A stretch of 64,000 nt of DNA from Thermococcus sp. 21S7 (GTDB lineage Archaea; Methanobacteriota_B; Thermococci; Thermococcales; Thermococcaceae), in contig NZ_SNUT01000001.1 in the NCBI RefSeq assembly GCF_012027615.1, positions 62,001 through 126,000 on the forward strand. The letters run 5' to 3'. Under the pieces are notes generated by a model, which saw nothing but the letters and a program-made list of their open reading frames with translations, did no database searches and was not told the origin of the DNA. Within the stretch, counting starts at the first letter, position 1. Each line of letters starts with the position of its first letter. Made by a program: the position numbers and the translations under genes. Below, piece after piece: positions 48,144 to 56,158 of the stretch.

Positions 48144-48539
48144 CTATTTGCCGAAGCGCTCCATAGCTTCTTCCGGGGTAAAGACCTCGGGGAGCCACTC
48201 AAAGTGCTTCTTGTTGTAGGTGATCAGCGGGGCGTTGAGTTTCAGTGCCAGGGCACCTATCATGTAGTCCCTGGCGTTTTTGGAGAAGTTCCAGCGACCG
48301 ATAGCCGAGTTCACAGCGAGTTCAGCGCATGTTTCATCAAATCCATTAATCTCAATTGCTAAAGAGCCAAAAATCGCCATTAACTTGCTCCTTGCTTCGG
48401 GTAAACCCCTACGTCGGGCGTACCTGTAGAGCAGTTCCATATAGACAACGGCGCTCGTAACGGGTTCAAGGCTCGATTCCATCAACCATTCTAAAAAGGC
48501 AATGTTATTAAAGGCGTTTGTGTCCAGGACTACCTTCAT
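48144..48539 (-). CDS. vapC: PIN-domain toxin (VapC)
   Basis: 131 residues. VVLDTNAFNNIAFL (Asp 6), VVYMELLYRY near 31 (Glu), and NARDYMIGALALKLNAPLITYNKKHF near 90 (Asp), the PIN acidic set. A ribonuclease controlled by the AbrB-type gene before it, whose stop overlaps its start by four bases. A separate PIN toxin lies at 31814-32272. Confidence 0.9.
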   Translation of the reverse strand: MKVVLDTNAFNNIAFLEWLMESSLEPVTSAVVYMELLYRYARRRGLPEARSKLMAIFGSLAIEINGFDETCAELAVNSAIGRWNFSKNARDYMIGALALKLNAPLITYNKKHFEWLPEVFTPEEAMERFGK

Positions 48540-48784
48540 TCTCCTCCCTCCAGCTCGCGGAGAGAGCGCCCTATGCCCCTCGCAAGCCCCTGTCTGACTT
48601 CTTCGATGGTCTCGTCTATGTCCCTCGTTATCTCAGCAAATTCCTTGAGCAAATCAGTCAGCTTCATCAAGACGTACCTGTCACCTTCACGAACGAAAAC
48701 AACTTCGTCCCCGGCCTTTATTCCCAGTGCCTCCCGTACATCCTTGGGAATCGTCACCTGGTATTTCTTTGTCACAACTGGCAT
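48536..48784 (-). CDS. vapB: AbrB/SpoVT-type antitoxin (VapB)
   Basis: 82 residues. VVTKKYQVTIPKDVREALGI, then GDEVVFVREGDRYVLMKL, the swapped-hairpin DNA-binding domain, with a helical tail that caps VapC. It binds its own promoter. ATG 48784 follows GGTGAAGGTA. Typical unit with vapC. Confidence 0.92.
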   Translation of the reverse strand: MPVVTKKYQVTIPKDVREALGIKAGDEVVFVREGDRYVLMKLTDLLKEFAEITRDIDETIEEVRQGLARGIGRSLRELEGGE

Positions 48785-48878
48785 TACCTTCACCGATAGA
48801 GTATTACCTCTTCAGACCTAATAACCCTTTTGGGGCGAGATTAATAAGGTGTTCCTGGTACTCAAAGGGGGGACAACC

Positions 48879-51255: not shown

Positions 51256-51525
51256 TCAGGCGAGGGAGACCTTGGCAATCCTCTTGCCCTCTTCCTCTTC
51301 AACAACGACCTTAACGCGGAGCTTGTTGGGCGGCTTCTCCGCTCCGCGCTCCCAGAGCTTCTCGTTGACGTCGGTGCCGATGACGACCTCGTCGGCCTTG
51401 GCGTGCCTGGCTATCCACTCGCGGACGAAGCGGGCAGCCCTCGGGGCCCTCTTCCAGCGCGGAACGCGCTTCTTTATCTTCTTGATGGGAACGACGAATA
51501 TGACTTCCTCTCCGGGCTTGATCAT
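51256..51525 (-). CDS. rpl31e: Ribosomal protein L31e
   Basis: 89 residues. [59 protein letters not shown], the L31e signature. Large subunit, near the exit tunnel. ATG 51525 follows GAGGTGATTTAG. Confidence 0.96.
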
Positions 51526-51745: not shown

Positions 51746-53179
51746 TTAAGCTTTTTCGTGGGGTCTAAGTGCTTCTCGAATCAGCTCGTCAACTCCGTCT
51801 TTTCCGCATACGTATCCCAGCTTTCTCATTCTAGAGTAGCCAATAACTGTATCTTTGCCCCTGTAAAATACAACGTCTGCATCAAAAGGATACTTTTTGA
51901 AGCCCTGGAGGCCATCTTCGGATATTTCGCCCCTGAAAACGATGCATTTGCCGTCTTTGCACTCAAGAACCTTAACGTCCTCCGGCCAAAGAAGGTTGAG
52001 CCTCAATGCGTAATCCAGCACTTCCTCTTGGAGTTCGAGAGTGGAAAGAGTGCCTTTCGACCTGTTGTGGTCGAGTATCATCATCAGAGCCTTCGTGAGG
52101 GCCCATAGTGGAGGGTCATTATGCTCGTAGTCTCTCCCCAAGTTAATGTACGGGTTGGCATACAGGAACTCCGGAATCCTGCGCTTCCACATCATGAACT
52201 CGGCTATTCTTGTTAGGCGAATTATCCTGTTGGAGATAACCCTGTAGTCCTCGTACCATCTTATATCGTTGCCCCACTTGAGGTTCACACGTTTGAGCTT
52301 TCCAAGCCAGATATCCTCGCTGAGCTTTGTCTTGAACAGATTGTTTTCTTTTGCAAATTCGTATGCTTTAAGAAAAATCTCGTAAGCTTCTTTCACCGGC
52401 TTAAACTTTCGCATGGCAAAGTTGTAAACAACGGCCTCGCTCAGATTCCAAATGATATCCTGAATGGAGCCTACGGGGTCTTCGGCTTTTCCGTTCTTCA
52501 CTAACTCCCACTCTCTCTTTGCCTTCTCGTGGAACTTTTCACCCTTCTCCTCGAATTCTTTTAGTGTTTTCTGGTATTCTTCCCAGTAATCAATCTCCTT
52601 AGGCTTGGAGAACCTCTCCAAGGCCTTTATGAGCTCCTCCGGAACTTCAAAGTTGTGGGATTCAAGGTATTCTTTAAGTCTGACGAGAACCTGGTAGAAA
52701 ATATCCTCCCTGGCTTCCATCAATATTAAGTTACAGAGTTCCACTACTTCTTCCTTAGATATCGGGGAATCGTTAGAGATTTTAGAATAGAGGCAACATA
52801 ATGTCCTTGCAATTTTAAATTTATTGTAGACATCAGGATGATTTTTTAAGATGTCTAAGATGTCCACATTTTGAATTTTTGAGTAATTTAGTATTTCTTC
52901 AATATACGAACATGCTTCTCTAAGGAGTATCTTTCTATCCGAGGTTCCCAAGGAGATAACGAGCCCGAGTTCGTTCCTTAGTGTAAGTTCATCGCTCCCG
53001 AAAAATCCAATAACTCCCCATGAAAAGTTAAAAAGTAGTTGTGGAAGTCGCTCCTTTAATTGTTTCAGGGCTTCTTCCTGAGATAGTGGTTTCTTTCTGG
53101 TTACACTTATTCCACTTTTAACATCATTCCATATGCCCTTGGCAGAGACGTAGTTTAGTACAATTGAGGGGAGATTCAC
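51746..53179 (-). CDS. Large unknown protein of an accessory operon
   Basis: 477 residues, mostly helical, many Lys/Glu/Leu/Tyr residues, no signal peptide, no membrane span, no motif that I recognise. Recurring segments (KPLSQEEALKQLKERLPQLL, DIIWNLSEAVVYNF, IIRLTRIAEFMMWKRR) give no family. The codons are plainly AT-richer than the flanking genes. Start GTG 53179 follows AGGGGGAATTGCA. As the last gene behind a putative surface protein and a nuclease-like gene, it may serve as partner or immunity protein, but this is inference only. Confidence 0.66.
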   Translation of the reverse strand: MNLPSIVLNYVSAKGIWNDVKSGISVTRKKPLSQEEALKQLKERLPQLLFNFSWGVIGFFGSDELTLRNELGLVISLGTSDRKILLREACSYIEEILNYSKIQNVDILDILKNHPDVYNKFKIARTLCCLYSKISNDSPISKEEVVELCNLILMEAREDIFYQVLVRLKEYLESHNFEVPEELIKALERFSKPKEIDYWEEYQKTLKEFEEKGEKFHEKAKREWELVKNGKAEDPVGSIQDIIWNLSEAVVYNFAMRKFKPVKEAYEIFLKAYEFAKENNLFKTKLSEDIWLGKLKRVNLKWGNDIRWYEDYRVISNRIIRLTRIAEFMMWKRRIPEFLYANPYINLGRDYEHNDPPLWALTKALMMILDHNRSKGTLSTLELQEEVLDYALRLNLLWPEDVKVLECKDGKCIVFRGEISEDGLQGFKKYPFDADVVFYRGKDTVIGYSRMRKLGYVCGKDGVDELIREALRPHEKA

Positions 53180-53191
53180 TGCAATTCCCCC

Positions 53192-53449
53192 TTATGAAGC
53201 GCTTCCGTAGATAAATGCCACATAAAGGTTTGACTTATACATCCTGTAAACGGAGACTATTCCTGGCTGACCTTCCAGATTGCGGTAGTATCCATCCCGT
53301 ATCAATGAGGTAACTCTGAAAACTGTGGTTCCCTTTGCCTCCCATTTAGTTAAGGAGACACCCGGAATCTTAACATGAGGAAAATCGGGACCTTTTTCGT
53401 TCGGATTTTTAGGTACGGTTATGCTTTCAGCGCCATAGACTTTCTTCAT
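53192..53449 (-). CDS. Short protein with PD-(D/E)XK-like signature
   Basis: About 85 residues (GTG 53464 would give 90). Sequence: PKNPNEKGPDFPHVKIPG and TKWEAKGTTVFRV, with an Asp then E-x-K (EAKG) at the spacing of restriction-endonuclease-fold nucleases, followed by a beta-rich end (YRMYKSNLYVAFIYGSAS). The N-terminal helix expected in that fold (GNWKAVAYLAMKKVYGAE) is partly upstream of any ATG. ATG 53449 overlaps the stop of the previous gene (ATGA). It is either a separate coupled gene or the tail of a frame-shifted protein. See findings. Confidence 0.55.
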   Translation of the reverse strand: MKKVYGAESITVPKNPNEKGPDFPHVKIPGVSLTKWEAKGTTVFRVTSLIRDGYYRNLEGQPGIVSVYRMYKSNLYVAFIYGSAS

Positions 53450-54288
53450 TGCAAGATATGCCACAGCCTTCCAGTTGCCCCAATAATGAACCTAATCCCT
53501 TTTAAAGCCGCCAGCTCCCAGTTACCCTCCTTTAAATTCTTTACAGTAGCGTTAAGAGCAAGTTTGCCTGATGGCACGATGAGAATTATTCCAACCAATT
53601 CTCCAACGGTAACTTTAAAATCCTTATCTTTTTTATGGATAAATTCCTTCACGTAAATCCTCTTAGGAAGACCTCCATAAAACTCTCTTTCATAGATGTG
53701 GATTGTTTTTTCATCCCTTTTTCTCTCTTCTATGTAGTTGTAAAAGTATTGATAAGCACTGTCGAGCTTTTCACGAATTTCGTCACTGTATTCGTAAATG
53801 GCCTCGGCAACTTCGATGGAGAACATTACTACCGCCATTGTAAGGAGTGCATAAAGTGCGGTTAAAACCCATTCACCTACTACAAAAACCGGAATGAACA
53901 TGACAGCCATAGCCGATGGGACGAACACACTAGTACCCGTGGACATCGCGATCCCCATAGATTTCACCCAAAGCAGTAATGGATGTTCGTTTGACCAAGT
54001 TGAATGTGCTAAACCCTGCGTGGATGTGGCAGATTTAACGTTAATAGCAGACCCGCCCATAAACTCCTCAGGAGAAACATGAGTTTCAATGAATGCCTTA
54101 ACTTCCTCCGGTGTGTTCAAGCTGGAGTTATCGGCTATAACGAGCTTCACTGGGACACCGTAAATCTCAATTTCATAAACCCTCATTCCCGCGGTTGTCT
54201 GCTGAATCGCATCCTTGGTGGCGAGTGCGGGCTGTAGAACTAACCCGAATATTAAGATTGAAATAATCAGTCCAATAACTCTTCTCAC
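53446..54288 (-). CDS. Signal-peptide membrane protein, first gene of the accessory operon
   Basis: 280 residues from GTG 54288 (GGTGATG before it). Signal peptide (MRRVIGLIISILIFGLVLQPALA), a beta-rich extracellular part to about residue 110, hydrophobic segments near 115-165, a charged KRDEKTIHIYEREFYGG region, then VGELVGIILIVPSGKLALNATVKNLKEG and a short end. No family recognised. The end reads as if cut off, and the following gene continues in another frame. TATA box GATTTATAAC at 54320-54329. Confidence 0.66.
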   Translation of the reverse strand: MRRVIGLIISILIFGLVLQPALATKDAIQQTTAGMRVYEIEIYGVPVKLVIADNSSLNTPEEVKAFIETHVSPEEFMGGSAINVKSATSTQGLAHSTWSNEHPLLLWVKSMGIAMSTGTSVFVPSAMAVMFIPVFVVGEWVLTALYALLTMAVVMFSIEVAEAIYEYSDEIREKLDSAYQYFYNYIEERKRDEKTIHIYEREFYGGLPKRIYVKEFIHKKDKDFKVTVGELVGIILIVPSGKLALNATVKNLKEGNWELAALKGIRFIIGATGRLWHILQ

Positions 54289-54382: not shown

Positions 54383-56071
54383 TCAGAATATCAGCGGAGC
54401 CCTGTACTCGCCCCAGACCTCACGGAGGACGTCGGTGACCTCTCCGAGGGTCGCGAGGTGCCTGTGGGCCTCGATGATGTAGGGCATGAGGTTCTCGTCC
54501 TCGGTTTCGGCCGCCTTCCTGAGCCTGTCGAGGGCCTCCTCGACCTTCTTGCTGTCTCTCTCACTCCTGAGCTTCTTGAGCCTCTCGATCTGCTTCTCCC
54601 TGATGCTCGGGTCGACCTTGAGTATCTCGACGTCGAGCGGCTCGTCGACGATGAACTCGTTGACGCCGACGATGATGCGCTTCTTCTCCTCGACTTCCCT
54701 CTGGTACTTGTAGGCGCTTTCCGCTATCTCCTTCTGGATGTAGCCCCTCTCGATGGCCCTCATCATTCCGCCCATCTTCTGAATCTTCTCGATGTACTTC
54801 AAAGCTTCTTCGTAGATGTGGTCCGTGAGCCACTCGATGTAGTACGAACCTCCGAGCGGGTCTATGGTGTCAACGACCCCGCTCTCGTAGGCGATTATCT
54901 GCTGGGTTCTGAGGGCAATCCTGACGCTCTTCTCGGTCGGAAGGCTCAGAGCCTCGTCGTAAGAGTTGGTGTGCAGGGACTGAGTTCCTCCGAGAACCGC
55001 TGCCAGGGCCTGAATCGCAACCCTGACTATGTTGTTCTCCGGCTGCTGGGCGGTGAGCGTTGAGCCGGCCGTCTGGGTGTGGAAGCGCAGGAGCATCGAG
55101 CGCGGGTTCTTGGCGTTGAACCACTCCCTCATTATGTAGGCCCAGAGCCTCCTCGCTGCCCTGAACTTGGCAATCTCCTCCAGGAAGTTGTTGTGGGCGT
55201 TGAAGAAGAAGCTCAGCCTTCCGGCGAACTTGTCGACGTCCATGCCCCTGTCTATGACTGCCTTGACGTACTCTATACCGTCGGCGAGGGTGAACGCAAC
55301 CTCCTGGACGGCGTTGGCTCCGGCCTCGCGGATGTGGTAGCCGCTTATCGAAATCGGGTTCCACTTGGGGACGTGCTCGGCGCAGTACATGATGATGTCG
55401 GTCGTAAGGCGCATGCTCGGCTGCGGCGGGAAGATGTAGGTTCCCCTGGCTATGTACTCCTTGAGGATGTCGTTCTGAACGGTTCCCCTGAGCTGGTTTG
55501 GCTGGACTCCCTGCTCTTCAGCAACCAGAATGTACATAGCAAGGAGGTTGGCGGCGGTCGAGTTGATGGTCATACTCGTCGAAACCTTGTCGAGCGGGAT
55601 TCCGTCGAAGAGGACGCGCATGTCCCAGAGGGAGTCGATGGCGACACCGACCTTTCCGACCTCACCCTCGCTCATGGGATGATCAGAGTCGTAGCCTATC
55701 TGGGTCGGCAGGTCGAAGGCGACGCTCAGACCGGTCTGGCCCTGCTCCAGGAGGTACTTGTAGCGTCTGTTGGACTCCTCAGCGGTTCCGAAACCGGCGT
55801 ACTGCCTCATCGTCCAAAAGCGGCCGCGGTACATGGTCGCGTAAACTCCGCGGGTGAACGGGTACTCACCGGGGAAGCCGAGCTTTTCGAGGTAATCCCA
55901 GTCCTCTCCGAGGTCGGCGGGGGTGTAAACGCGCTTTATTTCAAAACCGTCGTCGGTCATGAACTTCTCCTTTCTCTCGGGCCTCTTCTCGATGAACTTT
56001 TTAACCGTCGTTTCGTCCCAGCGCTTTTCCTCCTCCCTAATCTTCGCGAGCTTCTCCTTATCGAAAGTCAT
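54383..56071 (-). CDS. Methylmalonyl-CoA mutase, catalytic (large) subunit
   Basis: 562 residues, the length of archaeal catalytic subunits that lack the B12 domain. Start region [21 protein letters not shown], substrate-binding [16 protein letters not shown] near 115, and [14 protein letters not shown] near 140, [12 protein letters not shown] near 240 (Tyr/His of the active site), and [20 protein letters not shown] near 335. Partner of the small subunit at 13904-14335. ATG 56071 follows GGTGGTAGGC. Confidence 0.95.
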
Positions 56072-56158
56072 GCCTACCACCTGCCCCTATTTGGGCGCCG
56101 GCCTATAAAAAGCTTTTACATAACTAAAGGCTGTGTTTGACATCGGATAAATTATCCA

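What the first reader, a model, noticed from the sequence alone, without database searches (positions are those of the whole stretch)
53440..53520. Reading-frame break inside a possible toxin
The frame of the short nuclease-like gene is open upstream to TAG (about 53504-53506 on the minus strand) and there encodes VHYWGNWKAVAYLAMKK, the helix that precedes the PD-(D/E)XK core in such folds. The first gene ends in the other frame with an odd short tail (FIIGATGRLWHILQ). One base change in the overlap would join the two into a single surface protein with a C-terminal nuclease. This suggests an inactivated toxin, a sequencing error, or true coupled translation through the ATGA.
Basis: partly seen in the sequence, partly recalled or inferred. 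Interest (0 to 1): 0.6.

Follow-up and report, generated by a model that had tools for sequence, protein, structure and literature searches.

The report
Broken archaeal toxin-like gene
A heat-loving archaeon (a Thermococcus relative) carries a surface protein with a nuclease-like tip that is one intact protein in related species but is split by a frame error here; the family behaves like a swappable toxin with a matching partner gene, and is not described in the databases or papers searched.

Summary
The frame break is real in this sequence. The 280-aa gene (53446-54288, minus) and the 90-aa frame behind it (53192-53464) are two pieces of one gene. Six related Thermococcus genomes carry it as a single open frame of 351-365 aa, with an invariant junction (GATGEAV) where the window is out of frame by one base. 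No relative has the two-protein ATGA arrangement, so coupled translation is unlikely. The window genome shows almost no other broken genes and the site is not a long homopolymer, so a recent real mutation is likelier than a sequencing error; only reads can decide. The gene looks like a polymorphic-toxin-type module: signal peptide, membrane segment, and a C-terminal tip with an E...GPDF...WEAKG pattern shared with a 29%-identical paralogue family, followed by a cytosolic partner gene. Tip and partner N-terminal part are exchanged as a block between species, with near-identical DNA on both sides. Copies sit at several chromosomal sites; 4 of 12 are broken, two with an intact partner. The nuclease fold rests on the motif only: profile searches found nothing and AlphaFold models were poor. 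Toxicity and immunity are inferred.

The parts
53446..54288 (-). 5' piece of the broken toxin-like gene, 280 aa: signal peptide (about 1-23), hydrophobic segment (about 117-165), conserved pre-tip region; last 7 residues are out of frame
53459..53473 (-). frame break around codons 273-275: net one-base difference from all six intact relatives; the downstream frame is -1 relative to the upstream one
   Evidence: DNA alignment; invariant GATGEAV
53192..53464 (-). 3' piece: C-terminal tip with GPDF and WEAKG (nuclease-like), 90-aa open frame
51746..53179 (-). partner gene, 477 aa, no membrane segment, intact; N-terminal part co-varies with the tip; candidate immunity protein
53180..53191 (-). 12-base gap with GGGGG ahead of the partner's GTG start; operon-like spacing

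Best explanation
This is a recently inactivated copy of a two-gene polymorphic-toxin-like module of Thermococcaceae. In intact relatives, gene 1 makes a 351-365 aa protein with a signal peptide and a membrane segment, ending in a PD-(D/E)XK-like tip (Glu in GEAV, Asp in GPDF, ExK in WEAKG). Gene 2 makes a cytosolic partner that probably neutralises the tip. Tip and partner N-terminus are exchanged together by homologous recombination in the conserved flanks, as in toxin/immunity pairs. In the window the frame is off by one base at the left edge of the tip, so the long product ends after 7 wrong residues and lacks the tip; the partner stays intact. Shown: single ORF in relatives, the break, purifying selection on both pieces, block exchange, constant pairing, several chromosomal sites. 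Inferred: nuclease fold, delivery to neighbours, immunity, and that the lesion is in the organism rather than in the reads.
For: Six intact relatives with the frame continuous through the junction. The tip piece in the window has dN/dS about 0.10 against G025, so the break is recent. Only 2 of 145 genes compared in this genome show a frame change, this one and one likely over-extended ORF. Block exchange: G025/G067 are 99-100% identical over most of the toxin N part and 97-100% over most of the partner C part, but 62-82% in the tip and about 50% in the partner N part. dS G025/G067 is 0.11 for N and 1.17 for C; G067/G031 is 0.96 for N and 0.16 for C. Paralogue family B shares GE-V...GPDF...WEAKG and has its own partner, found full-length only beside it. 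Independent broken copies in G101, G007 and G016.
Against: No profile match to any nuclease or toxin family; no similarity to Hjc by profile comparison; AlphaFold models at pLDDT 34-35. The partner is large for an immunity protein, and only its N-terminal part co-varies with the tip. G061 pairs a type-II tip with a short-type partner, so the pairing of types is not strict. No raw reads.
Confidence: 0.6

Rival explanations
1. Sequencing or assembly error: the strain has an intact gene and the frame change exists only in the assembly.
For: Draft genome of 48 contigs; both pieces are conserved and the partner is intact; a single isolated lesion.
Against: Almost no other frame changes among 145 orthologous genes. 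The site is not a long homopolymer. Other family copies, two of them in single-contig genomes, are broken at other places.
Confidence: 0.25
2. Regulated use of two frames: -1 slippage, or termination and re-initiation at the ATGA, so that the tip is made separately or at low level.
For: The frames are arranged as a -1 slip would need, and the stop overlaps an ATG.
Against: All six relatives have one frame, and at the ATG position four of the six read ATA. No classical slippery heptamer and no well-placed ribosome site seen in the overlap (inspection only). The re-initiated product would lack the motif Glu.
Confidence: 0.06
3. The module is not an intercellular toxin but a membrane-anchored nuclease used inside the cell, for example against viruses or plasmids, with the partner as regulator.
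For: The hydrophobic segment could leave the tip on the cytoplasmic side; the partner is cytosolic; patchy distribution at several sites.
Against: No PADLOC match. A signal peptide and tip/partner block exchange are more typical of toxin/immunity pairs.
Confidence: 0.25
4. The tip is not a nuclease; GPDF and WEAKG are conserved for another fold or activity.
For: No fold or profile support.
Against: Spacing and identity of E, D and ExK fit the superfamily pattern and form the invariant core between two families about 29% identical overall.
Confidence: 0.25

Closest known systems
Bacterial polymorphic toxins with Tox-REase tips (Zhang et al. 2012, PMC3482391)
   Same: C-terminal tip with E/D/ExK pattern (Tox-REase-5 is listed with FDG and EAK), export signal, partner gene directly downstream, tip exchange
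   Different: No match to any Pfam toxin profile; short delivery region without repeats; partner large, with only its N part exchanged
CDI CdiA-CT/CdiI modules
   Same: Tip and partner vary together beside conserved flanking sequence (general knowledge; PMC3150448 abstract)
   Different: No resemblance to CdiA or CdiB in the scans made; here the conserved flanks lie in the toxin N part and the partner C part
VARTIG modules of Thermococcales (PMC8416519)
   Same: Thermococcales, surface proteins, recombination, organisation compared to polymorphic toxins
   Different: No Ig domain found here; two genes only; the VARTIG authors report no DNase or RNase toxin in their modules

Membership tests
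Polymorphic toxin systems | Conserved N-terminal region joined to an exchangeable C-terminal tip | tested here: met
   dS contrast and identity profile; but only two related tip types within family A, plus family B
Polymorphic toxin systems | Dedicated partner gene directly downstream | tested here: met
   constant neighbour; its immunity function not tested
Polymorphic toxin systems | Export or delivery signal | tested here: inconclusive
   N-terminal hydrophobic segment followed by ALA, by hydropathy only; no dedicated predictor on hand
Polymorphic toxin systems | Recognised toxin domain in the tip | tested here: not met
   no Pfam or NCBIfam match; so it is described as working like one, not filed as a member of a named toxin family
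Polymorphic toxin systems | Toxicity to cells lacking the partner | not testable with these tools
   needs an expression assay
PD-(D/E)XK nucleases | E...D...ExK motif, invariant across divergent members | tested here: met
   GE-V, GPDF, WEAKG invariant in 8 copies of families A and B
PD-(D/E)XK nucleases | Common core fold | tested here: inconclusive
   pLDDT 35 and 34; no profile similarity to Hjc
Tox-REase-5 (PF15648) | Match to the family profile | tested here: not met
   direct Pfam scans of the proteins list no such match; the genome search found none in 115 genomes, but its control genomes were silent too

The most novel reading that the evidence does not exclude
An undescribed archaeal toxin/immunity family in which one recombination block spans the toxin tip and only the N-terminal specificity part of a large partner, and in which the toxin gene is repeatedly inactivated while the partner can be kept as immunity.
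Probability: 0.4. Interest if true: 0.7.

Novelty: new variant of a known kind. Interest (0 to 1): 0.5.

Why it matters
Experimentally tested toxin/immunity pairs in archaea are scarce: the VARTIG paper (2021) states that predicted archaeal polymorphic toxin systems had not been experimentally characterised (PMC8416519). This family is small (two genes), has natural tip swaps with near-identical flanks, and has natural broken copies with an intact partner. That makes the toxin/immunity idea directly testable with ordinary cloning.

Tried and rejected
Pfam, NCBIfam, PADLOC and PHROGs scans of toxin and partner: only weak hits without meaning. PDB sequence search: nothing. Viral contigs and plasmids: nothing. 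Tox-REase-5 in the phylum: none, control also silent. Hjc profile comparison (one search was a faulty first try): no similarity. AlphaFold of the whole protein and of the tip: too poor for a fold search, so none was run. Coupled translation was set aside because relatives have a single frame. Phase variation was set aside for this site because it is not a simple repeat; the G101 break does lie near A-runs and stays open.

Full report
What was checked. The window lies in a draft genome (G000, 48 contigs, 99.9% complete) whose close relatives are Thermococcus and other Thermococcaceae. Neighbouring genes are methylmalonyl-CoA mutase (54383-56080) and ribosomal protein L31e (51256-51525).

One gene in relatives. 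A search with the 99-aa second frame found it inside longer open frames of 359-431 codons in four other genomes. A search with the first piece found open frames of 359-383 codons, running on through the tip, in six genomes: G025, G067, G064, G031, G061, G034. In all six, piece 1 residues 1-273 are followed at once and in frame by the second piece from residue 8. The DNA alignment shows a net one-base difference in the window at about codons 273-275. The residues GATGE are invariant in the relatives, and the Glu codon is what the break destroys.

Mutation or error. The piece after the break keeps its frame to a stop near that of the relatives, with dN/dS about 0.10 against G025, so the break is recent or not real. 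Frame changes were counted against G064 orthologues over 400 kb: 2 of 145 genes in G000, one being this gene, the other looking like an over-extended ORF. The site has no long homopolymer. These facts favour a real mutation, about 3 to 1 by judgement; only reads can decide.

Other broken copies. G101 (single contig, another genus) carries the same family broken by a different frame change, with its 613-aa partner intact. G016 has a TAA in the toxin and a partner split into several frames, in a MAG. G007 has a broken family-B copy whose frame changes just ahead of the tip, and its partner match contains a TAG. Among 12 copies long enough to judge (9 of family A, 3 of family B), 4 are broken, the window's included; G066 and G074 run off contigs and were not counted.

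The module. The intact protein has a signal-peptide-like start ending in ALA and a hydrophobic segment at about 112-165; the partner has neither. The partner starts 12 bases behind the toxin frame with GGGGG ahead of its GTG. Family A toxin and partner occur together. Family B (G101, G035, G007), about 29% identical to family A, has its own, dissimilar partner that was found full-length only beside it. Modules sit at several sites: mutase/L31e (G000, G025, G067, G064); purine genes (A in G034 and G031, B in G035); a purB/Alba-like neighbourhood (G061, G016, G066, G074 in part); near enolase (G101); another site in G007. These neighbours were named by eye except the mutase and L31e.

Tip exchange. 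Between G025 and G067 the toxin N part is 99-100% identical in most windows and the partner C part 97-100%, while the tip is 62-82% and the partner N part about 50%. Synonymous divergence confirms it: G025/G067 dS 0.11 for N and 1.17 for C; G067/G031 0.96 for N and 0.16 for C. The flanking mutase gene and its downstream gap are only 80-91% identical, so the module itself seems to have moved between species. The window's break lies at the left edge of the exchanged block, which may be a coincidence. The pairing is not strict, since G061 has a type-II tip with a short-type partner.

Mechanism. The conserved core of the tip across families A and B is GE-V...GPDF...WEAKG, which fits the E...D...ExK pattern of PD-(D/E)XK nucleases. 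Zhang et al. 2012 (PMC3482391) list similar patterns for toxin REase families. Profile searches and models did not confirm the fold, so this step rests on the motif. Delivery to other cells and neutralisation by the partner are inferred from architecture and co-exchange.

Literature. Searches found no description of this family. The VARTIG modules of Thermococcales (PMC8416519) are different, and their authors report no DNase or RNase toxin in them. Makarova et al. 2019 in mBio on archaeal toxins is not held, so a prior description there cannot be excluded.

Noticed in passing
L061:9768-15076: Tandem array in G101: family-B toxin and partner, then a broken family-A toxin and intact partner; A and B share the first 27 residues (signal peptide).
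   Followed up: partly
L118:6612-8973 and L022:4912-7814: In a purine-gene neighbourhood, one species holds family B and another family A.
   Followed up: partly
L120:1383-2249: A 288-aa Thermococcus protein resembles the partner's C-terminal part (about 25% over 254 residues); no Pfam or NCBIfam family. Similar weak matches in about ten genomes.
   Followed up: partly
window 48144-48793: PIN-domain gene beside a MazE/AbrB-like gene on the minus strand: an ordinary VapBC-type pair.
   Followed up: no
L083-L102 (G064, first 400 kb): G064 shows more frame-changed orthologues (9 of 127) than G000 (2 of 145); sequencing quality or gene decay not resolved.
   Followed up: no
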